Positions 1-41,572 of a stretch of DNA of 64,000 bases are shown here, piece after piece (the stretch's first letter is position 1; every line of letters starts with the position of its first letter). The DNA is from Bacteroidota bacterium (GTDB taxonomy: Bacteria > Bacteroidota > Ignavibacteria > Ignavibacteriales > Melioribacteraceae), in assembly GCA_018829205.1 (NCBI GenBank), contig JAHJUE010000012.1:62001-126000 (forward strand), in the 5' to 3' direction. Made by a program: the position numbers and the translations under genes. Under the pieces are notes generated by a model. The model was not told the origin of the DNA. It did not search any database and was given only the letters and a program-made list of their open reading frames with translations.

Positions 1-1466
1 TCAGGCACGCCTCCGCAAATATCATATACTTCTTTCTGAATTTCAGTAATTGTTTTATACGGTAGTTTTGAATTTTTTACCGCTTTTAATAAATCCTTTC
101 TTTTAGGATTAATTGCAATTCCTCTTTCAGTTATTATTACATCTATAAGTTCTCCGGGTCCGCATAAAGTTGTAACTTCGTCCATTATTACCGGAATTCT
201 ATCTCTAAAAGACGGGATGGCAAGTATTGTGCATTTTGAGAATAAACAATTCTGCCAGCCGCCTATTCCATGAAGTAGATACCCGTCGGAATGACTTACA
301 ACATTGGCATTAAAATTAACATCAACTTCGGTAGCGCCCAAAACAACAGCATCAATTATTGAAGCGAAATTACCTTTGCCGTGATAATTGTAGCTGGTAA
401 AGGGACTGGTATTAACATGATTGGCGTTTTCACGCATTGACCGCACACCTTCAAGATCGAATGTTTGTCCGTCAAGAATATAATCCGTTAAACCTTCTTC
501 AAGCATCTCAACTAAATACTTAGTGCTGCCGCCTCTAATAAATCTGGCTTTTATTCCTTTTTCTTTCATTCGCTCTTTTAAATAAACCGCAAAAGCTAAA
601 TTGGTTCCGCCGGCACCTGCCTGAAAAGAAAAACCGTTTTTCATTATTCCGGCATCTTCCATAAATTGAGCTACATATTCGGCAATCAACAATCTGTCGG
701 GACTCTTAGTAATTTCTGTTGTTCCGGATACTATTTTTGACGGATCTCCCAACGAATCAACCTGAACTACAGTATCTACATTATTGCCCTGTATCTGCCA
801 TGGATAACATGGGAAAGGTACAAGGTTATCGGTTACAACAATAACATTATCGGCATATTCGGAATCCGCTAAAGCGAATCCTAATAATCCGCATGCTGAA
901 GGACCGCGGTCGCCTGTCGCATTACCGAAAGGATCGGCAGTAGGAGCTGCAATTACCGCAATGTCGACATGAACTTCGCCGTCCTGAATTGACTGGTATC
1001 TTCCGCCGTGAGAACGGAGAACTCCGATACCTTTCATTTTTCCTTCGGTAGTAAATTTACCCAAAGGACCGTTCATACTTCCTTCAATATGATGAATTGT
1101 TCCGTCTTCAAGATATTTAATCAAATGCTGGTGACATGGAAACGATGCGCTGGGGAACCATCTAATATTTTTAATTCCCATAGATTTAATAGTATCAAAC
1201 AGCAGGTTTGTTACAACATCGCCGTTACGCAAATGATGGTGCGTTGAGATTGTCATTCCGTTTTTTAATCCGGCTTTCTTTAAAGCTTCCTTTAAATTCT
1301 TTACAATTTTATTCCCGTCTGACGGATAATCGGCGCAGCTTCTAATTGGGGGAGCGGCAATCCTTCCGCTTGGTTTATGTTTTCCAATTCCTTTAAAAGG
1401 AATTTGTTTTTCTCCGTTAACTGTTGTTGGCACAAATCTTCCGGCAGAGTTTTTTTCTAATTTCAT
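1..1466 (-). CDS. citF: Citrate lyase alpha subunit (CitF), 3' end outside window
   Basis: The reading frame runs from an ATG at 1466 to the window edge (about 488 codons) without a stop, so the C-terminus is missing; the family is about 500-520 residues and probably only a few tens of residues are lost. The start has an AAGGAT Shine-Dalgarno 4-5 bases upstream. The protein reads MKLEKNSAGRFVPTT, then the family-typical ISTHHHLRNGD, GSMNGPLG and GGSTKYLVEML segments. CitF is the citrate:acetyl-ACP transferase of the bacterial citrate lyase complex, acting in the cytoplasm with CitE and the acyl carrier CitD. It lies 102 bases downstream of a CitD-CitE fusion on the same strand. The ligase and prosthetic-group genes (citC, citX, citG) would have to be outside the window. 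Confidence 0.92.
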   Translation of the reverse strand, partial: MKLEKNSAGRFVPTTVNGEKQIPFKGIGKHKPSGRIAAPPIRSCADYPSDGNKIVKNLKEALKKAGLKNGMTISTHHHLRNGDVVTNLLFDTIKSMGIKNIRWFPSASFPCHQHLIKYLEDGTIHHIEGSMNGPLGKFTTEGKMKGIGVLRSHGGRYQSIQDGEVHVDIAVIAAPTADPFGNATGDRGPSACGLLGFALADSEYADNVIVVTDNLVPFPCYPWQIQGNNVDTVVQVDSLGDPSKIVSGTTEITKSPDRLLIAEYVAQFMEDAGIMKNGFSFQAGAGGTNLAFAVYLKERMKEKGIKARFIRGGSTKYLVEMLEEGLTDYILDGQTFDLEGVRSMRENANHVNTSPFTSYNYHGKGNFASIIDAVVLGATEVDVNFNANVVSHSDGYLLHGIGGWQNCLFSKCTILAIPSFRDRIPVIMDEVTTLCGPGELIDVIITERGIAINPKRKDLLKAVKNSKLPYKTITEIQKEVYDICGGVP

Positions 1467-1568: not shown

Positions 1569-2783
1569 TTACTCTCTCCAATTTTTAGAAATAATATTAT
1601 TCAATAAAGCTGACTCAATAACTTTCTGCGCGCGTTTTACAACGGGAGCGTCAATCATTTTGCTCCCTAAAGCTACAACTCCCATTCCTTTAGACTGCGC
1701 ATCTTCAAAAGCGAGAACAATATTTTTTGCTTTATCTATTTCATCATTTGTAGGCGCGAATGTTTCATTTATAACCTTTATCTGACGCGGATGAATACAG
1801 CCTTTCCCCTCAAACCCCAAATTCTTTGCTTCTATTACAGAGGCTTTTAATCCGGCCATGTCCGAAATATCAGAAAAAACGGTATCAATAGCCTGAATTC
1901 CCGCGGCTTTTGCTGCGTTTACAACCATGCTGCGCGCGTAAAAACTTTCTTTGCCTTCATTGGTTCTCTGTGTTCCTATATCCGCGGTATAATCTTCCAA
2001 GCCAACCGCCAAAGCGCAATTATAGTCCGATGCAGCGGCTATTTCAAAAGCGTTTATTACGCCCCTCGCGCTTTCAATAATTGGCATATAATAAATATCG
2101 TTTTTGATATTATATAATTCCTTAAGCACCTCAACTTCGCGTTCAACATTCTTTACATGAACGGCAGATTCACATTTAGGGATTAGAATAACATGAACAT
2201 TATGAGGCACAATAAATTTTAAATCTTCAATTCCTCTCGGCAGCTGATTAATTCTTACCATTCTTTCTGATTTGTAAAAATCAACAGAGCGCAGCGCGTT
2301 TCTAACCATTAATTGAGCGGCGTCTTTTTCCGGGGGAGAAACACTGTCTTCCAAATCAAGAATAATCGCGTCGGGATTATGAAGTCCGGCATTCGTATAA
2401 AACTTAGGTTCATTGCCGGGCAGATAAAGCCTGCTTCTTCTAAGTTTGTCCTTTGAAGATTTATATTTATTATTCGTATTTAAAGGGAGAAGATATTCTT
2501 TAGTGATATCGGGGAATAATCTTTTTACCGCGTTTTCAAAACGGGCGCATAATGTAAACGGAAGCGCTCCGAAGTCATTTATGTAAATATCCGCATTATT
2601 AAGTTCGAAAAACTTTATCATATCTTTAACAAGTTTTCTGATGCTGTTTCCATACATCACTTCAACCTTGCTTTCAATATTTATCTTTATGCCTTTCGAA
2701 TCATTTTTGCAAATTTCTATAAAACAATCTGAACTGATTTTTTCCCCTTTTTTTCCCGATGAAGCTAATTGAATTTGTTTCAT
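1569..2783 (-). CDS. citE: Citrate lyase acyl carrier protein-beta subunit fusion (CitD-CitE)
   Basis: Residues 1-95 match the CitD acyl carrier protein: after SSGKKGEKISSD come NIESKVEVMYGNSIRK and INDFGALPFTLCARFENA, the conserved CitD pattern. Ser17 (or Ser18) aligns with the serine that carries the phosphoribosyl-dephospho-CoA group. A Lys/Asn-rich linker (about 100-113) leads to a full CitE citryl-ACP lyase TIM barrel, with RRSRLYLPGNEPKF (115-128) and DLEDSVSPPEKD (143-154); IGTQRTNEGKE and GCIHPRQI follow. CitE cleaves citryl-S-ACP to oxaloacetate and acetyl-S-ACP. CitD and CitE are normally separate proteins of about 95 and 290 residues, so this 404-residue chain is a genuine domain fusion that tethers the swinging arm to one catalytic subunit. 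It sits directly upstream of citF in the same operon. Confidence 0.9.
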   Translation of the reverse strand: MKQIQLASSGKKGEKISSDCFIEICKNDSKGIKINIESKVEVMYGNSIRKLVKDMIKFFELNNADIYINDFGALPFTLCARFENAVKRLFPDITKEYLLPLNTNNKYKSSKDKLRRSRLYLPGNEPKFYTNAGLHNPDAIILDLEDSVSPPEKDAAQLMVRNALRSVDFYKSERMVRINQLPRGIEDLKFIVPHNVHVILIPKCESAVHVKNVEREVEVLKELYNIKNDIYYMPIIESARGVINAFEIAAASDYNCALAVGLEDYTADIGTQRTNEGKESFYARSMVVNAAKAAGIQAIDTVFSDISDMAGLKASVIEAKNLGFEGKGCIHPRQIKVINETFAPTNDEIDKAKNIVLAFEDAQSKGMGVVALGSKMIDAPVVKRAQKVIESALLNNIISKNWRE

Positions 2784-2799
2784 TTTTATTTACCCGGCT

Positions 2800-4233
2800 T
2801 TAAACAACCAGCTTTTGCATAAACTGATTAATTGTTAAATCTTCACAGTTAAAAATCATTTCTTTAATTTCTTTTTGTCTTTCGGCAGTTAGTAATTCGT
2901 GCGAAAGAGCGTTGAATTTGTTCTCAAGATCTTCAATAGTCATAGGTTCGCGCGGATCTCCTTTCGGGAATTCCAAATACTCGGAAAATTCTCTTCCGTC
3001 CTTGGTTTTAATTACAACTTTCGAAGGCTGTTTAGCTGGGAACATTTTTTCAAACTCAATTGAAGGTTCGCCTTTAATTTTATCAATTACTTCAAACACT
3101 CTCTTATCGTTAAGCTTCTCATCAGAAAATGATTCTGTTGTGACTTTTTTATCTACAATTGCTACAGCCAAACAATAGGGGAGCGAATGGTCGGCTGTTT
3201 CTCTTGATTCAGGTCTGTATTTATGCGGATCGAACAATATATCGTATGCTTGAGCCAATGTGGTTACTCTAACTTCTTCCACTTGAGAATAATCCAGATT
3301 ATTATTAACCATTACTTTAATCGCGCAGGTTAAATGTGTATGCGAAAGCGCTTCGGTAGGGAATGCTTTCATTCCGCATTCAAGAATTTTATAATTTTGA
3401 CCTAAATCTTTAACAAGCGCGTCAACGTCCCAGCTCCATTTTGAAACACCGTCTCTGCCCTGCATATCAACCGGCGAAAGTTTTTCATTTTTTGCGTCCC
3501 ATCCAAGGAAGCAGTCCATAAATCCTTCCTTTCCTTCAAATACTTTTTCAGTTCCTGAATAACCTTTTTTTGCCATCAGGGCGGCAAACACACCGCTTTG
3601 AACCGCCATAGGGTCAACAGTATTTTTCATCATCGTTAATTTACCGGCAGTCGGGCATCCTATTGTATGGTTATGACATCCGCTTATACCTATTGCGTTT
3701 ACCATTTCATCAACTGTTAAACCTAATAACTTTCCCGCAACAATCGGGGATACAAATTGGGTTAAAGTTGCGTGATGCCATTTACGTTCACGAATTCCAG
3801 GTTTCGCAAACAAACATAAACGCTGTTCAAATTCATATGCCAATACAATAGCTACAATAATATCCTTCATTGAAGCGTTGACAATTTCACCAGCCGAAAA
3901 AGCAGCAGGCATAATATCGGACGGATGAGAAGGATCTTCTTTCCAGTAAATATCATTAAAATCCAAAGCGCGGATCATTAATGAATTAACGAGCGCTGCA
4001 TTAACGGCAGGAATCTTTTCACCGAAACCGATAATTGTAGCTTCCTCTTTGCCGGCCATATCCTTGTAAATATCTCTTATTATATTTACATCCTTTGTAT
4101 GGTAGCCGCCGTAGGCGCATCCAATTGAATCATATAAATATCTTTTTACTTCGTGCACGACATTATCAGGCAAATTCTCGAATTTCAGATTAACAGCAAA
4201 TTCGGAAATTTGCCTGGAGATAGATTTTTCCAT
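2800..4233 (-). CDS. MmgE/PrpD family dehydratase
   Basis: This 477-residue protein has the typical length and motifs of the MmgE/PrpD family: YLYDSIGCAYGG near the N-terminus, RALDFNDIYW, HPSDIMPAAFSAGE and the late FPTEALSHTH segment. Family members include 2-methylcitrate dehydratase (PrpD) and cis-aconitate decarboxylase, which act on tricarboxylates in the cytoplasm. It is 16 bases upstream of the CitD-CitE gene and downstream of an aconitase, so a citrate, 2-methylcitrate or aconitate-like substrate is a reasonable inference. No 2-methylcitrate synthase or lyase (PrpC, PrpB) is visible, so a methylcitrate cycle is not demonstrated. The exact substrate is unknown. Confidence 0.85.
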   Translation of the reverse strand: MEKSISRQISEFAVNLKFENLPDNVVHEVKRYLYDSIGCAYGGYHTKDVNIIRDIYKDMAGKEEATIIGFGEKIPAVNAALVNSLMIRALDFNDIYWKEDPSHPSDIMPAAFSAGEIVNASMKDIIVAIVLAYEFEQRLCLFAKPGIRERKWHHATLTQFVSPIVAGKLLGLTVDEMVNAIGISGCHNHTIGCPTAGKLTMMKNTVDPMAVQSGVFAALMAKKGYSGTEKVFEGKEGFMDCFLGWDAKNEKLSPVDMQGRDGVSKWSWDVDALVKDLGQNYKILECGMKAFPTEALSHTHLTCAIKVMVNNNLDYSQVEEVRVTTLAQAYDILFDPHKYRPESRETADHSLPYCLAVAIVDKKVTTESFSDEKLNDKRVFEVIDKIKGEPSIEFEKMFPAKQPSKVVIKTKDGREFSEYLEFPKGDPREPMTIEDLENKFNALSHELLTAERQKEIKEMIFNCEDLTINQFMQKLVV

Positions 4234-4266: not shown

Positions 4267-4716
4267 TTATTTAACTTGAAAATATGTTGAATAAAGCTGT
4301 AGTATCTCTTCCTTAAATTGAAACGGATCAATTTCTTCATCGCCTACTTTAAAGACGAAATTCTTATCACCTTTTTCGTAAGAGAATTTATCAAATGTTG
4401 AAGGGAATTTGGTAAAGTCGATTTCGTGTCCTTCGGGCAAACTCGGGTCATCAATTATTACTTGATAATTCTTCTTAGCAGTAACAATATCCTTACACAG
4501 TTTAATATATTTATGACTTGCAGTTTTGCGCAAAAGTCTTTTAACCGGTTCGGATGTTTTAAGAGGGGAATTTTTAATCCATTCCTGAAAATGGTAAGCC
4601 GTTGATACAAAATTAAACATTGCATCTCCGCTTACAAGCCGGTCAAGATGTTCGTAATCGCGAATTAGTTTTTCAAAAATATTTCGCGGAGTCTGAAAAT
4701 CATGTGTTGCTTTCAT
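4267..4716 (-). CDS. Unknown 149-residue protein in citrate operon
   Basis: I do not recognise this protein. The open frame extends to an ATG at 4803, but the ATG at 4716 is preceded by GGAGG with five bases of spacing, so 4716 is the better start. The protein begins MKATHDFQTPRN, is charged, has no signal peptide or membrane segment, and ends in an acidic/aromatic tail (EEILQLYSTYF). It carries one cysteine (LCKD) and no obvious enzymatic motif. It lies between the aconitase and PrpD-like genes with 98 and 33 base gaps, so it is probably cotranscribed with them. A structural or regulatory partner of one of these enzymes is only a guess. Confidence 0.7.
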   Translation of the reverse strand: MKATHDFQTPRNIFEKLIRDYEHLDRLVSGDAMFNFVSTAYHFQEWIKNSPLKTSEPVKRLLRKTASHKYIKLCKDIVTAKKNYQVIIDDPSLPEGHEIDFTKFPSTFDKFSYEKGDKNFVFKVGDEEIDPFQFKEEILQLYSTYFQVK

Positions 4717-4814
4717 TGCTGCCTCCAGTTTGTTTCTTAAACCAGGGTCGCGCACTAATTGCGCCGACTTTGAATAAATCAGGACGAAATCCTTCCCGCA
4801 CATTATTCAGAAAT

Positions 4815-6788
4815 TTATATATTCTTTTTAACCCAGTTTTCAAGTCCGCCGTCAATAATTAATTCCTGTGCGGCAGTTCCTACCGGGCTAATTGAGTATT
4901 CTTTTCCGTCAGCATAAATTACAGAATTTTTAAAATCGATTTTTGCTTCTATCTTTGTAAGAACTGTAAGTTTATCTTTCCCGAATTTATTTTTTAGATC
5001 ATCAACTAATTCAGGTGCTTCAATACCCAGATAGCCGTTATTCAGACTATTTCTCATATAGGTTTGACTGAAAGATCCGGCTATAACGCATTGAATACCT
5101 TTATATTTTAATGCGGTAGCTGCCTGCTCGCGAGAACTGCCCGTCCCGAAATTAAAGCCTCCTACAAGTATATCTCCCGCGTTAACATTGTCTTTAAATT
5201 CAGGATCATAATTTTCCATCACAACCTGAGCTTGTTCTTCAGGAGTGATGTCATCTTTATAAGTATATTTACCGGGATAGATACCGTCTGTATTCATATT
5301 ATCCTGATTGCAGAATACAAGCTGACCTGAAATAATTTCAGGGAATCCTTCAAGAATTTTTACATTTACTTTAGATTTATGAGTTCTGGATTTAGATTCA
5401 ATTGCGGCAGAAATATTTGAAACAGCTTCATCCCAAGGAAAATCAATAAAACCGGAAACGGCAGACGCAGCTACAACAGCGGGAGAAGCTAGATAAGCCT
5501 TTGCATTAGGTGAACCCATTCTTCCTTTAAAATTTCTATTTGTCGCCGATATTCCCACTTCACCGTCTTCCAGCAATCCGGTTCCCAAACCTATACACGG
5601 TCCGCATCCGGGCGGAAGCGTAATTGCTCCGGAATCAACCAAGGTCTGCCATGTACCGTTTTTCTCGCATTCATATTGAACTTCGTTAGATGCCGCCGCG
5701 ATGTAGAACTTCACGCCTTCTTTAATTTTTTTACCTTTTATTGCAGCCGCGGCTTCCGCGATATCATCAATTCTGCTGTTTACACACGAAACCAAATATG
5801 CTTTATCTACCTTAATTTTTTCTTTTTTTATTTCCGGAAGGGAGGTCATAACTTTTACAGAATTTGGACCGGAAACATGAGGGGCAATTGAATTAAGATC
5901 TATAGTAATTTCTTTAGAGTAGTAAGAATCCGGGTCAGGTTGTAAATGTTTTAAATCTTTTTCCAGCTCATTAATTCTTTCAATATTAATTCTTGGGTGC
6001 CGACCGTTTCCGTCAGCGTCCGAAGGCACTCCCTGAAGTCCGCGTTTGTTAATATACTCCGCTCTTTTATAAAGCCAGTTAATTGTTATCTCATCAATCG
6101 GGAAAACTCCCGCAAGCGCACCCCATTCAGTTGTCATATTAGCGATGGTCAAACGTTGATCAATACTTAACTCTTTCAGTCCTTCGCCTACAAATTCAAT
6201 AACATAATTTAATACTTCGTCTTTGTTGAAGAACCCGCATAGTGCAATAATTACATCTTTTCCTACAACGCCTTTTTTTAATTTTCCTTTTAATTCAACC
6301 TTAGCGACGGGGGGAATCTGCCACCAAGTTCTTCCCGTAGCCCAAATTGAAGCTGCGTCGGTTCGCACAATTGGAGTACCGAGACAACCGATTCCGCCGT
6401 ACATATTCGAATGACTGTCGGATGCGACCGCGACCGTTCCAGGCCATGCATAACCTTCTTCAATCATTATCTGATGGCCAATTCCGCGGCCGGCGGGATA
6501 AAAATCCGCGCCCATTGATTTCGAAAATTCTTCGATCTTTTTATATTTCGCTAAGTTTTGTTCGCTGGTATCCTGAATATTATGATCCAAAGTATGAACA
6601 ACCTGACGGGGATTAGCAAGCTTTGTTGCGCCGATACTTTTGAATTTTGGAATTACAGCTCCTGTATTGTCGTGTGTCATTACATAAGCCGGTTTTATTG
6701 AAACATAATCACCGCTTTGGACAATCTGCCCTTCATCCAGTCCGAAGGCATATTTCTGAACAATTTTTTCTATTAAATTCTGAGGCAT
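4815..6788 (-). CDS. Aconitase family hydratase, Lys4 (homoaconitase)-like
   Basis: 657 residues with the aconitase fold: N-terminal MTHDNTG (37-43), YPAGRGIGHQ, VASDSHSNMYGGIG (121-134), and 4Fe-4S cysteines at about Cys335 (VSCVNSR) and Cys395/Cys398 (GCGPCIG). The swivel domain has FNFGTGSSREQAATAL (545-560). The start has GGAG about six bases upstream. The stretches ATGRTWWQIPPVAKVELKG and CGFFNKDEVLN resemble fungal homoaconitase (Lys4) more than AcnA or AcnB. Family chemistry is reversible dehydration/hydration of citrate, homocitrate or related tricarboxylates. Next to citrate lyase and an isocitrate dehydrogenase-family gene, citrate/isocitrate is the likeliest substrate, but specificity for homocitrate or methylcitrate analogues cannot be excluded. 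Confidence 0.9.
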   Translation of the reverse strand: MPQNLIEKIVQKYAFGLDEGQIVQSGDYVSIKPAYVMTHDNTGAVIPKFKSIGATKLANPRQVVHTLDHNIQDTSEQNLAKYKKIEEFSKSMGADFYPAGRGIGHQIMIEEGYAWPGTVAVASDSHSNMYGGIGCLGTPIVRTDAASIWATGRTWWQIPPVAKVELKGKLKKGVVGKDVIIALCGFFNKDEVLNYVIEFVGEGLKELSIDQRLTIANMTTEWGALAGVFPIDEITINWLYKRAEYINKRGLQGVPSDADGNGRHPRINIERINELEKDLKHLQPDPDSYYSKEITIDLNSIAPHVSGPNSVKVMTSLPEIKKEKIKVDKAYLVSCVNSRIDDIAEAAAAIKGKKIKEGVKFYIAAASNEVQYECEKNGTWQTLVDSGAITLPPGCGPCIGLGTGLLEDGEVGISATNRNFKGRMGSPNAKAYLASPAVVAASAVSGFIDFPWDEAVSNISAAIESKSRTHKSKVNVKILEGFPEIISGQLVFCNQDNMNTDGIYPGKYTYKDDITPEEQAQVVMENYDPEFKDNVNAGDILVGGFNFGTGSSREQAATALKYKGIQCVIAGSFSQTYMRNSLNNGYLGIEAPELVDDLKNKFGKDKLTVLTKIEAKIDFKNSVIYADGKEYSISPVGTAAQELIIDGGLENWVKKNI

Positions 6789-7460: not shown

Positions 7461-8009
7461 TTATAGCTTAAGAACATCCGCTTTAAATGGTTCAAAACTT
7501 ACAAAATCCGCATGGTGCACAATTATTGATTCTATTGTTCTTTTTCCTAAATCGCCTTCAACAGAATGAGAAAGAATTATATGCTGCACATCCGCGGGAA
7601 TACCAAATCTGTCAGCAATCGCGACCCCGCTGAAAGGATGTCTAATTAATTTACCTTCGCGGCTTGTACTTAATTTTCCGTCAACAATTTCATATTCCAA
7701 AAGTTTTCCGACATCTATTAATATAGCACCTGAAATGAGAATGTCCATATCAATCGTAATTTCTTCACCGAAATTATTTTTCATGATTTTTGCTATTTCC
7801 ACAGAAAGCTGCACAGCAGTTCTTTTATGGTTCATAAAACTTATATTGCAGTCTTTGATAAGAAGCGAAAACGGAATTTTTTCCAGGTCTTCAGCTGAAA
7901 GTACGCTGTTTTCAATTGCGTATTCCCAGCATTTAAATGTTTTTTCTTTTAGATCCGGATTTTTAATCCATTCAATTTCCGGCCAGATTTTTTTTAATTG
8001 TTCCCGCAT
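7461..8009 (-). CDS. HD-domain-like protein with altered HD dyad
   Basis: 182 residues with GGAG upstream of the ATG. The layout is that of HD-superfamily phosphohydrolases: His61 (NHKRTAVQLS), the GAILxDVGK segment (94-102), RHP at 123-125 and SHS at 147-149. The expected His-Asp dyad is Ile98-Asp99 here (LIDVGK instead of LHDVGK), which removes one metal ligand. Canonical members hydrolyse phosphate esters with bound metal. With the dyad broken the protein may be a non-catalytic binder or use a different metal site. It is cotranscribed with the citrate-operon genes, which hints at a regulatory job but does not prove one. Confidence 0.75.
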   Translation of the reverse strand: MREQLKKIWPEIEWIKNPDLKEKTFKCWEYAIENSVLSAEDLEKIPFSLLIKDCNISFMNHKRTAVQLSVEIAKIMKNNFGEEITIDMDILISGAILIDVGKLLEYEIVDGKLSTSREGKLIRHPFSGVAIADRFGIPADVQHIILSHSVEGDLGKRTIESIIVHHADFVSFEPFKADVLKL

Positions 8010-8066: not shown

Positions 8067-8426
8067 TTATTTCGAATATTTTTTTATTAAACTTGTCAGC
8101 ATCGCAAAAATTTCATTGGAAAGTTTTGCAAGTTTTTTGATATCATTATCATTCAAATAATCTAATTTTAATGCTACTTCTATTTGAGTATCAATTTCTA
8201 CTAATGACGACCTTGATATTTCAAAAAATCTTTTCTTTTCCAAACTTGATTTTCTCGAAGCCCCTTCAGATAAATTAGATATTATAGAAATAGAAGCTCT
8301 TCGAATCTGATTCGTTAATGAAAACAATTCTTCTTTAGGAAATTTATTAGTAATCGAATAAACTTCTAAAATCAATTCCAAACTTTTCTTCCATACTTCA
8401 AGCTTCTTGTGACTTAATTGAATCAA
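8067..8426 (-). CDS. S23-type four-helix bundle protein
   Basis: This 119-residue, almost wholly helical protein carries the hallmark pattern of the four helix bundle/S23 family: HKKLEVWKKS near the N-terminus, QIRRASISIISNLSEGA in the middle and the LEIDTQIEVA-like helix. Family members are encoded in 23S rRNA intervening sequences or as free genes; their function is not established. The start codon appears to be TTG at 8426 (frame MIQLSHKK), which is uncertain. It is inserted in the citrate operon and bracketed by inverted AGTTAGAAGT-type repeats, so it looks like a later arrival instead of a functional part of that pathway. Confidence 0.85.
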   Translation of the reverse strand: MIQLSHKKLEVWKKSLELILEVYSITNKFPKEELFSLTNQIRRASISIISNLSEGASRKSSLEKKRFFEISRSSLVEIDTQIEVALKLDYLNDNDIKKLAKLSNEIFAMLTSLIKKYSK

Positions 8427-8468: not shown

Positions 8469-9647
8469 TTATAAAAAAGAAATTATCGCATCTGTCATCT
8501 GTTGTGTCGTTGCCGCGCCGTATTTAATTGAATCAGCGCCGCCTCTAATTTTCATCATATCGTAAGTTTTAACCTTGCCTTCTTCAATTACTTTTGCAAT
8601 CGCGGTTCTTATTTTATCTGCTTTTTCTTTTTCACCGATATGATCTAACATCATTACGGCGCTTAAAATCATAGCTATCGGATTTACAATAGAAGGATTT
8701 AGTTCTTCATATTTAGGGGCAGAGCCATGAGTAGGTTCAAAGACCGCGACTTCATCTCCAATATTTGCTGAACATGCAAATCCTAATCCGCCAACTAATC
8801 CGGCGAAGCCGTCGCTTATAATATCACCGAACATATTTTCTGAAACTAATACTCCGTAAGTTTCTGGATTTTTTGTAAGCCACATCATCTGTGCATCGAT
8901 ATTTGTATCCCACAAATCAATGCCCGGGTATTCTTTAGCGATTTGTTTGGCGATTTTAAGATACATTCCTGATGTTTCACGAAGTACATTAGGTTTTTCG
9001 CAAACTGTAACGCTTTTATAACCGAATTTATTTGCGTATTCAAATGCTGCTCTAATAATTCTTTCTGTAGCATTTTTAGTAACAATTCTTGTCGAAATTG
9101 CCATTTCTTCGCTTGGAACGTTAGCAAAACTTTTCATTTTAGGATGAGTTTCAAAAGCGTCTCTTACTTGTTTTGGAGGATTAGTCCATTCAATTCCGCC
9201 GTACATTCCTTCAGTATTTTGTCTGAATATTACAGCGTCAACTTTTGGTTCCTCAAATCCTCCTTTTCCGTCCTTGCGAATAAAGTTAAGCGGGTTTCCT
9301 GTAAAAGCTTGACAGGGGCGAATACAGATATCCAGATTAAAATGCTGACGCAGACCAACAATGGGGGAGAAATAAACAAAACCTTTATCCTGTAATTCAG
9401 GAGCAAGTTCTTTTACGGCATCGTCTTTTGGTTTACTTGTTATTGCACCGAAAAGACCTATTTTATGTTTTTCCAACAATTCAATTGTACGCTGAGGAAG
9501 CGCATTTCCTTCTTTCTGCCAGAATTCCCAGCCAATATCTCCGTGAACATATTCGGCGTTAAAACCTGCCGCTTCCAAAACTCTTATTGCTTCGGGTAAA
9601 ACTGTTTTTCCTATTCCATCACCGGGTAAAGAAACAATTGTTCTCAT
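8469..9647 (-). CDS. Isocitrate/isopropylmalate dehydrogenase family protein
   Basis: About 392 residues, beginning MRTIVSLPGDGIG. The ATG at 9647 is chosen over the one at 9656 because AAAGGA lies about eight bases upstream of 9647 but abuts 9656. Family motifs include FRQNTEGMYGGIEW, KPNVLRETSG, ENMFGDIISDGFAGLVGGLG and HGSAPKYEELNP. The enzymes oxidatively decarboxylate beta-hydroxy acids such as isocitrate with NAD or NADP. Substrate and cofactor cannot be fixed: the Lys-Tyr after HGSAP resembles NADP-type enzymes but the loop is longer. As first gene of the unit that leads into aconitase and citrate lyase, isocitrate is the likely substrate. A second, classical NADP-type enzyme is encoded at 40235. 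Confidence 0.88.
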   Translation of the reverse strand: MRTIVSLPGDGIGKTVLPEAIRVLEAAGFNAEYVHGDIGWEFWQKEGNALPQRTIELLEKHKIGLFGAITSKPKDDAVKELAPELQDKGFVYFSPIVGLRQHFNLDICIRPCQAFTGNPLNFIRKDGKGGFEEPKVDAVIFRQNTEGMYGGIEWTNPPKQVRDAFETHPKMKSFANVPSEEMAISTRIVTKNATERIIRAAFEYANKFGYKSVTVCEKPNVLRETSGMYLKIAKQIAKEYPGIDLWDTNIDAQMMWLTKNPETYGVLVSENMFGDIISDGFAGLVGGLGFACSANIGDEVAVFEPTHGSAPKYEELNPSIVNPIAMILSAVMMLDHIGEKEKADKIRTAIAKVIEEGKVKTYDMMKIRGGADSIKYGAATTQQMTDAIISFL

Positions 9648-9725
9648 ATTGAGCATCCTTTTTAGATTTATTATGTAATTTTTTCATATTTCTTTAATGT
9701 TATACTCACTGTAACAATTTACCGC

Positions 9726-40234: not shown

Positions 40235-41572
40235 ATGGTAAAAGATAGCAAAATTTCATTCCCTTCAGCCGATAAAAAAATCGTTTTCGAAAACGGAAAA
40301 TTACTTGTGCCTGATTTTCCAATTATTACCTTTATCGAAGGGGACGGAATAGGAGCGGATATTTGGCCTGCGGCTAAAAAAGTTTTGGACGTTGCCGTTA
40401 AAATAGCTTACGCCGGTAAAAAGAAAATTGAATGGCTGGAGGTTTATGCCGGAGAAAAATCGTTAAAGTTTTACGGAGGAGATAATTTGCTGCCCGATGA
40501 AACAATAGATGTTATTGATGAATTTAAAATGTCAATAAAAGGTCCGCTTACTACTCCGATAAGCGGAGGCGTACGTTCGCTAAATGTGGCATTAAGACAA
40601 AAACTTGACCTTTACGCGTGTGTGAGGCCGGTAAAATGGTATAGAAACGTTCCTAATCCAATGAAAAGACCGCAGGATTTGGATATAGTGATTTTTCGGG
40701 AAAACCTGGAAGATAATTATACAGGTATTGAGTGGAAGCGGGGAGATGATTCAATAAATAAACTTGAAGAATTATTAAAATCGGAAAATACCTATAAGAA
40801 AATAAGATTCCCGGAATCCTCAAACTACAGCTTAAAATCGGTTTCAAAAGAAGGTTCAATTAGAATTGTTAGAGCTGCAATTAATTTCGCCGTCAGGAAT
40901 AATCGAAAAAGCGTAACTATTGTTCATAAAGGAAATATTATGAAATTTACCGAAGGTAAATTTAAAGATTGGGCTTATGAAACCGCCTTAAACGAATTCA
41001 GAGATTTTATTATCACCGAAGATGAACTTTGGGATCAGGTTAAAAGTCCGGACGGAATTACTCCTATTAAAAAAGAAGGAGCTTTTGCATTTTTGAGAAA
41101 CGGTAATTCAGCGGGAAACCCAGGCGATAAAATTGTTGTAAAAGACAGAATTGCTGACGCGGTATTTTTGCAGTTATTATTAAGACCAACTGAATTTGAC
41201 GTTTTGGTAATGCTGAATTTAAACGGTGATTTATTATCGGATGCGGCAGCCGCTCAGGTTGGGGGACTTGGATTAGCGCCCGGGGCAAATATTAATTATG
41301 AAACTGGAGTCGCTGTTTTTGAAGCATCGCACGGAAGCGCGCCCAAATATGCCGGCTTGGATAAGGTTAATCCTTCTTCTCTAATACTTTCGGGAGTTAT
41401 GATGCTTAACCATTTGGAATGGAATCAGGCTGCTCAAATAATTGTTGATGCTTTGGAAAAAACAATTACCGCAAAAACCGTAACCTACGATTTAGCGCGC
41501 CAAATGGAAAATTCAAATGAAATCACATGCTCAAAATTTGCGGATGAAATAATTAAAAATATGGCGGTATGA
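40235..41572 (+). CDS. icd: NADP-dependent isocitrate dehydrogenase
   Basis: 445 residues, E. coli Icd type. Motifs: EGDGIGADIWPA (35-46), GGVRSLNVALRQKLD (111-125) with Ser115 at the substrate/phosphorylation position, FRENLEDNYTGIEW and HGSAPKYAGLDKVNP. The NADP-selecting residues of E. coli (Lys344, Tyr345, Val351, Tyr391, Arg395) are all matched (PKYAG, DKVNP, VTYDLARQM). It converts isocitrate to 2-oxoglutarate or the reverse. A second, divergent family member is in the citrate operon at 8469. It is flanked by unrelated genes and probably monocistronic. Confidence 0.93.
   Translation: MVKDSKISFPSADKKIVFENGKLLVPDFPIITFIEGDGIGADIWPAAKKVLDVAVKIAYAGKKKIEWLEVYAGEKSLKFYGGDNLLPDETIDVIDEFKMSIKGPLTTPISGGVRSLNVALRQKLDLYACVRPVKWYRNVPNPMKRPQDLDIVIFRENLEDNYTGIEWKRGDDSINKLEELLKSENTYKKIRFPESSNYSLKSVSKEGSIRIVRAAINFAVRNNRKSVTIVHKGNIMKFTEGKFKDWAYETALNEFRDFIITEDELWDQVKSPDGITPIKKEGAFAFLRNGNSAGNPGDKIVVKDRIADAVFLQLLLRPTEFDVLVMLNLNGDLLSDAAAAQVGGLGLAPGANINYETGVAVFEASHGSAPKYAGLDKVNPSSLILSGVMMLNHLEWNQAAQIIVDALEKTITAKTVTYDLARQMENSNEITCSKFADEIIKNMAV

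What the first reader, a model, noticed from the sequence alone, without database searches (positions are those of the whole stretch)
1569..2783. CitD-CitE fusion in one chain
Residues 1-95 carry a CitD acyl-carrier pattern with candidate Ser17 for the prosthetic group, joined through a linker to a complete CitE. In known systems the ACP and the lyase are separate subunits. The fusion changes the stoichiometry and geometry of the citrate lyase complex.
Basis: partly seen in the sequence, partly recalled or inferred. Interest (0 to 1): 0.6.

Follow-up and report, generated by a model that had tools for sequence, protein, structure and literature searches.

The report
Fused citrate lyase missing carrier serine
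In a clade of Ignavibacteria-type bacteria the carrier and cleavage subunits of citrate lyase are one protein, but the carrier has lost the serine that should hold its coenzyme arm and these genomes lack the enzymes that make and attach it, so the enzyme probably works on free coenzyme A instead.

Summary
Window 1569-2783 (-) encodes one 404-aa chain with a CitD-type domain (PF06857, residues 17-88, E 5e-18) joined to a complete CitE (PF03328, E 8e-51), next to citF. It is clade-wide: of 395 genomes sampled from the phylum, 37 carry PF06857 and all 37 are fused, with no stand-alone citD.

The serine that bears phosphoribosyl-dephospho-CoA in normal CitD (S14 of ES[SG]D, present in 12 of 12 comparators) is Arg in 40 and Lys in 1 of 42 fused proteins. 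The window's Ser17 is the lone exception. All 37 genomes lack CitX and CitG. The CitC-model hits all have short frames (163-185 aa), and the four read are CoaD. CitF has changed in parallel at residues otherwise invariant. Yet the ACP domain is never lost, and its tip (R-S-D-C) is strongly conserved.

Best reading: a citrate-cleaving CitF/CitE pair that has abandoned the covalent cofactor and works on free CoA thioesters, the ACP domain being kept as a docking or CoA-binding part. Its operon holds isocitrate dehydrogenase and aconitase-family genes. New variant of a known kind; substrate and carrier are unproven.

The parts
1569..2783 (-). citDE: fused CitD-type ACP domain + linker + CitE lyase, 404 aa
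2520..2738 (-). ACP (CitD/MdcC-type) domain, residues 16-88
   Evidence: PF06857 over cut-off in the window and in 39/39 relatives scanned; fold best matches MdcC 5vit_C
2724..2735 (-). tip of the ACP loop, residues S17-S18-D19-C20; relatives read R-S-D-C; canonical CitD reads E-S14-[SG]-D
1608..2447 (-). CitE lyase domain, residues 113-392; the family's invariant acidic and Arg positions (D143, E145, D146, R177, E237, D264) are kept
1..1466 (-). citF, acyl/CoA transferase subunit; runs off the window, 518 aa in all (ends in L003 at 15910). Clade-specific change of the otherwise invariant GGH-x-D motif to GGW-Q-N
2800..4233 (-). MmgE/PrpD-family protein, 477 aa, same operon; nearest solved relatives are cis-aconitate decarboxylases (weak); missing from the core operon in the deepest lineages
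4815..6788 (-). aconitase-family hydratase, 657 aa (homoaconitase-type; TIGR00139 892 bits), same operon
7461..8009 (-). HDIG-domain protein, 182 aa, conserved in the operon
8469..9656 (-). isocitrate/homoisocitrate-type dehydrogenase, 395 aa, first gene of the conserved set

Best explanation
citDE-citF encodes a two-polypeptide citrate lyase variant that has dropped the covalent cofactor. Shown here: the fusion has a single origin within the set compared; the prosthetic-group serine has become Arg/Lys; the known synthesis and attachment genes (CitG, CitX) are absent from all 37 genomes and no CitC was found; CitF has diverged in parallel at positions invariant in cofactor-dependent enzymes; the ACP domain and its tip are nevertheless kept under strong constraint. 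Inferred: CitF transfers free CoA from acetyl-CoA to citrate, giving citryl-CoA and acetate; the CitE domain cleaves citryl-CoA to oxaloacetate and acetyl-CoA, which re-primes CitF, so only catalytic acetyl-CoA is needed. The ACP domain survives as a docking or non-covalent CoA-binding module between the two active sites. In the cell this would be the citrate-cleaving step after isocitrate dehydrogenase and aconitase, with acetate recycled by the acetyl-CoA synthetase gene encoded beside it in many genomes.
For: Domain and fold. Clade-wide and always fused, 37/37. Serine replaced (12/12 canonical Ser against 40 Arg, 1 Lys, 1 Ser); a profile built only from canonical CitD aligns its 's' to the Arg. 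CitX 0/37, CitG 0/37, MdcG 0/37 (without a valid positive control). CitC-model hits have frames of 163-185 aa against 328-352 aa for real CitC, and the four read are CoaD by sequence. True CitF in exactly the 37 fused genomes plus one whose citDE is cut by a contig end. CitF changes such as GGHxD to GGWQN. L048 has neither Ser nor Cys at the tip. Operon IDH-HD-Acn-(PrpD)-CitDE-CitF. In G031, G116 and G132 the operon IDH is the only PF00180 protein. Acs within the fetched stretch in 14 of 42 loci. CitE-like enzymes outside citrate lyase use free CoA thioesters (PMC3832036).
Against: The tip (R17, S18, D19, C20 in 40-42 of 42) is far more conserved than the ACP domain's 60% mean column identity, which a mere relic would not need. 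An unknown enzyme could modify Ser18. The CitE part falls with ACP-dependent CitE, not with CoA-dependent lyases, in the tree. No assay, no mass spectrum, and no complex structure was available.
Confidence: 0.5

Rival explanations
1. The ACP still carries a covalent thiol arm, on the conserved Ser18, made and attached by enzymes unrelated to CitG/CitX (non-orthologous replacement).
For: Ser18 conserved in 41 of 42; the tip is the most conserved part of the domain; the ACP domain is never lost.
Against: Ser18 aligns with canonical position 15 (S or G), not 14. L048 has Ala there. No extra gene is conserved in the operon except an HDIG protein, MmgE/PrpD and TCA-type enzymes.
Confidence: 0.22
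2. It is a citramalate lyase (acetate + pyruvate), or a lyase for another hydroxy acid, rather than a citrate lyase.
For: CitE groups with the Peptoclostridium acidaminophilum CitE encoded beside methylaspartate mutase (support 91/85; 45% identity; L086); RipC/citramalyl-CoA lyase is the second-best NCBIfam family; the MmgE/PrpD gene is nearest to cis-aconitate decarboxylases.
Against: Operon partners are IDH and an aconitase-family enzyme, also in the deepest relatives L048 and L049. Clade-diagnostic residues are split: 4 citrate-like against 3 Peptoclostridium-like in CitE, 7 against 6 in CitF. The P. acidaminophilum branch is long.
Confidence: 0.2
3. One reading: a working CitD-CitE fusion with the usual prosthetic group on Ser17.
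For: In the window itself the aligned residue is Ser (SSD), as in canonical CitD.
Against: Arg or Lys in 41 of 42 fused relatives; loop 3 residues longer; no CitG or CitX in the genome, no CitC found.
Confidence: 0.04
4. The conserved Cys20 is itself the acyl carrier (thioester on a protein cysteine).
For: Cys in 40 of 42 at the tip of the carrier loop; canonical CitD has V/I/M/L there.
Against: Replaced by Leu in L048 and Val in L051, both with the rest of the system; a side-chain thiol without an arm is unlikely to reach two deep active sites.
Confidence: 0.04

Closest known systems
Bacterial citrate lyase CitDEF (E. coli, Klebsiella, Enterococcus; TIGR01608/TIGR01588/TIGR01584)
   Same: Same three domains, same gene order D-E-F, CitE and CitF about 35-44% identical, CitE active-site positions kept.
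   Different: D and E fused; prosthetic Ser14 replaced; citC, citX and citG not found; CitF motif GGHxD changed to GGWQN; operon holds IDH and aconitase-family genes instead of citC/citX/citG.
Citramalate lyase of glutamate-fermenting clostridia (Peptoclostridium acidaminophilum locus L086; gene clusters described in PMC4682846)
   Same: Closest CitE in the set (45%), same D-E-F order.
   Different: Separate citD with ESSD motif; citC and citX present; beside methylaspartate mutase genes.
Malonate decarboxylase MdcC/MdcA (PDB 5vit, PMC5534430)
   Same: ACP domain fold; class II acyl transferase logic.
   Different: MdcC carries the group on Ser25 and depends on MdcB/MdcG; the fused clade has no such serine, no MdcB (PF01874) hit and no MdcG hit.
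CoA-dependent CitE-like lyases (malyl-CoA lyase 4l9y, CLYBL 5vxc, citramalyl-CoA lyase 8khl/RipC)
   Same: CitE domain fold, best PDB matches; proposed use of free CoA thioesters.
   Different: Fused lyase groups with ACP-dependent CitE, has an ACP domain and a CitF partner.

Membership tests
CitD / citrate lyase ACP | PF06857 domain over gathering score | tested here: met
   65.6 vs 25.1 bits; 39/39 relatives match
CitD / citrate lyase ACP | equivalog score TIGR01608 | tested here: not met
   53.9 vs 63.5 bits
CitD / citrate lyase ACP | prosthetic-group serine in E-S-[SG]-D | tested here: not met
   Arg/Lys in 41 of 42 fused proteins; E lost too; the window alone has Ser
CitD / citrate lyase ACP | 2'-(5''-phosphoribosyl)-3'-dephospho-CoA bound | not testable with these tools
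   needs mass spectrometry; CitG and CitX absent in 37/37
CitE | HpcH/HpaI fold with the family's invariant acidic and Arg residues | tested here: met
CitE | equivalog score TIGR01588 | tested here: not met
   290.6 vs 443.4 bits, though it is the best family
CitF | PF04223 over gathering score | tested here: met
   425.9 vs 27 bits; aligns over nearly its whole length with 2hj0 and 1xr4
CitF | equivalog score TIGR01584 and invariant GGH-x-D motif | tested here: not met
   476.5 vs 501.45 bits with 488 of 518 aa scanned; motif is GGWQN
canonical citrate lyase system | citC, citX, citG in the genome | tested here: not met
   CitX and CitG 0/37; CitC-model hits all in 163-185 aa frames, CoaD in the four read; E. 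coli control positive
canonical citrate lyase system | cleaves citrate to acetate + oxaloacetate | not testable with these tools
   gene context only
citramalate lyase | linked to methylaspartate/mesaconate genes | tested here: not met
   none among the neighbours identified; neighbours are IDH, aconitase-family, PrpD

The most novel reading that the evidence does not exclude
A whole clade runs a citrate lyase without the famous covalent coenzyme: the carrier protein was fused to the lyase, lost its attachment serine and its synthesis genes, and became a non-covalent CoA-handling domain kept by selection. It may supply the citrate-cleaving step of a reverse TCA branch in bacteria thought to lack one.
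Probability: 0.4. Interest if true: 0.72.

Novelty: new variant of a known kind. Interest (0 to 1): 0.55.

Why it matters
Citrate lyase and malonate decarboxylase are textbook enzymes tied to one rare prosthetic group. A lineage that keeps the carrier fold but appears to have lost the serine and the makers of the group is a natural experiment on what the carrier domain does besides carrying, and a route by which a cofactor-dependent complex becomes CoA-dependent. [quoted passage not shown] An operon holding IDH, aconitase-family, CitDE and CitF is a candidate for such an enzyme. Annotation pipelines would name these proteins CitD/CitE and imply a cofactor that is probably not there.

Tried and rejected
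1) Fusion as an assembly artefact: rejected, 37 independent open frames. 2) Hidden stand-alone citD: none in the own genome or the phylum sample. 3) CitC present: the PF08218 hits all lie in frames of 163-185 aa against 328-352 aa for real CitC, and the four read are CoaD. 4) The enzyme as the cell's citrate synthase in reverse: not needed, citrate synthase is present in 37/37. 5) The operon aconitase as the only aconitase: wrong, the window's genome has another aconitase-family hydratase (800-aa frame) and a LeuC-like protein. 6) Substrate from diagnostic residues: undecided, 4 against 3 and 7 against 6. 7) Dispensable relic: unlikely, the ACP is never lost where CitF is. 8) Other phyla could not be sampled: 'of' needs a genome handle, and loci from plasmids are not accepted. 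9) Earlier reports of a CitD-CitE fusion or a prosthetic-group-free citrate lyase: none found in the searchable library; most subscription journals, and the Ignavibacterium album genome paper, are not held.

Full report
WHAT IS THERE. The chain at 1569-2783 (-) is a real fusion. PF06857 covers residues 17-88 (E 4.9e-18) and PF03328 covers 116-332 (E 7.7e-51), both above Pfam's gathering scores. NCBIfam's citE and citD models hit the same two parts but below equivalog cut-off, as for a diverged branch. The AlphaFold2 model is confident across both domains. The ACP domain folded alone finds MdcC of malonate decarboxylase first in the PDB (weak E-value, top rank). The CitE part finds malyl-CoA and citramalyl-CoA lyases. 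The ORF starts 16 nt after the stop of the upstream gene, and citF follows.

HOW WIDE. The nearest named contigs are Melioribacter/Ignavibacteriales MAGs (61-71% identity), so the window is probably from that group. Of 395 whole genomes drawn from the window's phylum, 37 contain PF06857; in all 37 it lies in one open frame of 377-455 aa. The own genome (99.95% complete) has only this copy. Genuine CitF (over 300 bits) occurs in the same genomes: one of them (G135) only as a fragment at a contig end, and one further genome (G322) whose citDE runs off a contig end just before citF. In the CitE tree the fused proteins are one branch (100/99), beside the citramalate-type CitE of Peptoclostridium acidaminophilum (91/85, long branch). 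Within this set one fusion event suffices. In the annotated comparators citD and citE are adjacent separate genes, overlapping by 4 nt in several (e.g. L093), which is an easy route to fusion.

WHAT THE CARRIER DOMAIN LOST. Twelve canonical CitD sequences (Enterobacteriaceae, Acetobacteraceae, Azospirillum, Lactobacillales, Peptoclostridium, Fusobacterium) all read AG-[TS]-x-E-S-[SG]-D-hydrophobic. The first Ser of that motif is the known attachment site (Ser14 in Klebsiella, own knowledge; MdcC Ser25 is the counterpart, PMC5534430). The fused proteins typically read AG-KRGDKV-R-S-D-C, a loop three residues longer with Glu gone. At the attachment position 40 of 42 have Arg, one Lys, and only the window has Ser. 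A profile built from canonical CitD alone puts its Ser on the Arg. The next Ser is conserved in 41 of 42 but is Ala in L048; Cys20 is replaced in L048 and L051. So 'Ser17' is a private substitution in a position the family has given up.

WHAT THE GENOMES LACK. In the 37 genomes (95-100% complete) CitX gives 0 matches and CitG 0. The MdcG C-terminal family also gives 0, but that search had no valid positive control. The CitC model hits only proteins of 163-185 aa; the four read are plainly CoaD (phosphopantetheine adenylyltransferase), while real CitC is 328-352 aa. The E. coli control was found for CitX, CitG and CitC. No known route to make or attach the prosthetic group remains.

WHAT ELSE CHANGED. 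Comparing 39 CitF partners of fused proteins with eight citrate-type and one citramalate-type CitF shows many sites where all cofactor-dependent enzymes agree and the fused clade differs, e.g. GGH-x-D to GGW-Q-N at window CitF residues 402-406, F75 to T, and L311 to R. So both halves of the acyl-transfer machinery have been rebuilt. The CitE active-site positions are kept. The ACP domain is not a free-drifting relic: tip columns are 95-100% conserved against a 60% mean.

CONTEXT. A gene set IDH - HDIG - aconitase-family - (MmgE/PrpD) - CitDE - CitF recurs: of 42 distinct loci, some short, CitF is present in 41, PrpD in 36, Acn in 31, HD in 30, IDH in 29. The deepest relatives L048 and L049 have IDH, HD, Acn, CitDE and CitF without PrpD. 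In G031, G116 and G132 the operon IDH is the only PF00180 protein, so it is probably a true isocitrate dehydrogenase there; monomeric IDH was not checked. Acetyl-CoA synthetase lies in the fetched stretch in 14 of 42. This favours citrate as substrate and a role in cleaving citrate made by reductive carboxylation, with acetate re-activated. Citrate synthase is also present in all. Direction and substrate are inferences; citramalate is not excluded.

MECHANISM. Most likely CitF moves free CoA between acetyl-CoA and citrate and CitE cleaves citryl-CoA, so that acetyl-CoA is only catalytic, with the ACP domain as a tethered docking or CoA-binding piece. Isolated canonical subunits are known to accept CoA esters (own knowledge; for malonate decarboxylase MdcD-MdcE, which decarboxylates malonyl-CoA, see PMC5534430), so the step from covalent arm to free CoA is chemically small. 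The main rival is an unknown modification of Ser18.

NOVELTY. In the library searched I found no description of this fusion or of a citrate lyase without its prosthetic group. Many relevant papers are not held. I rate it a new variant of a known kind.

LIMITS. Only the window's own phylum could be sampled; homology-based absence cannot exclude unrelated replacements; no experiment.

Noticed in passing
window 8067-8426 (-) and loci L006, L008, L011, L054, L056, L058, L063, L067, L068, L070, L076, L080: Four-helix-bundle / 23S rRNA intervening-sequence-type ORFs (PF05635, bAvd-like) sit between genes of this operon at different places in different genomes (16 of 42 loci carry one nearby): a small element that seems to insert repeatedly in one operon.
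   Followed up: partly
window 4267-4803 (-): 178-aa protein without any Pfam or NCBIfam match between the aconitase-family and PrpD genes; relatives at 48-59% identity in the same place in L047, L056 and L058.
   Followed up: partly
window 7461-8009 (-): HDIG-domain protein conserved in the operon out to the deepest relatives (L048, L049) with no obvious role in citrate metabolism; a candidate for an unrecognised partner function.
   Followed up: no
window 2800-4233 (-): MmgE/PrpD protein, far below the 2-methylcitrate dehydratase cut-offs, with cis-aconitate decarboxylases as the nearest solved relatives; beside an aconitase-family gene it could make itaconate or interconvert aconitate and citrate.
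   Followed up: partly
window 40235-41572 (+): A second isocitrate-dehydrogenase-family gene (445 aa) in the same window; some relatives have only the operon copy.
   Followed up: partly
L053 5430-9842: Four tandem ADP-ribosylglycohydrolase genes directly upstream of citDE in genome G240.
   Followed up: no
L068 13164-16380 and L069 around 9150-9300: CitF in G290 is split into three pieces with a 346-aa ORF between the first two; in G188 the start of the ACP domain lies in another frame at an A-run. The systems may be decaying or mis-sequenced there.
   Followed up: partly
L068 10567-13149; L073 10919-13558: Large ORFs (860 and 879 aa) of unknown family inserted between citDE and citF in two genomes.
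   Followed up: no
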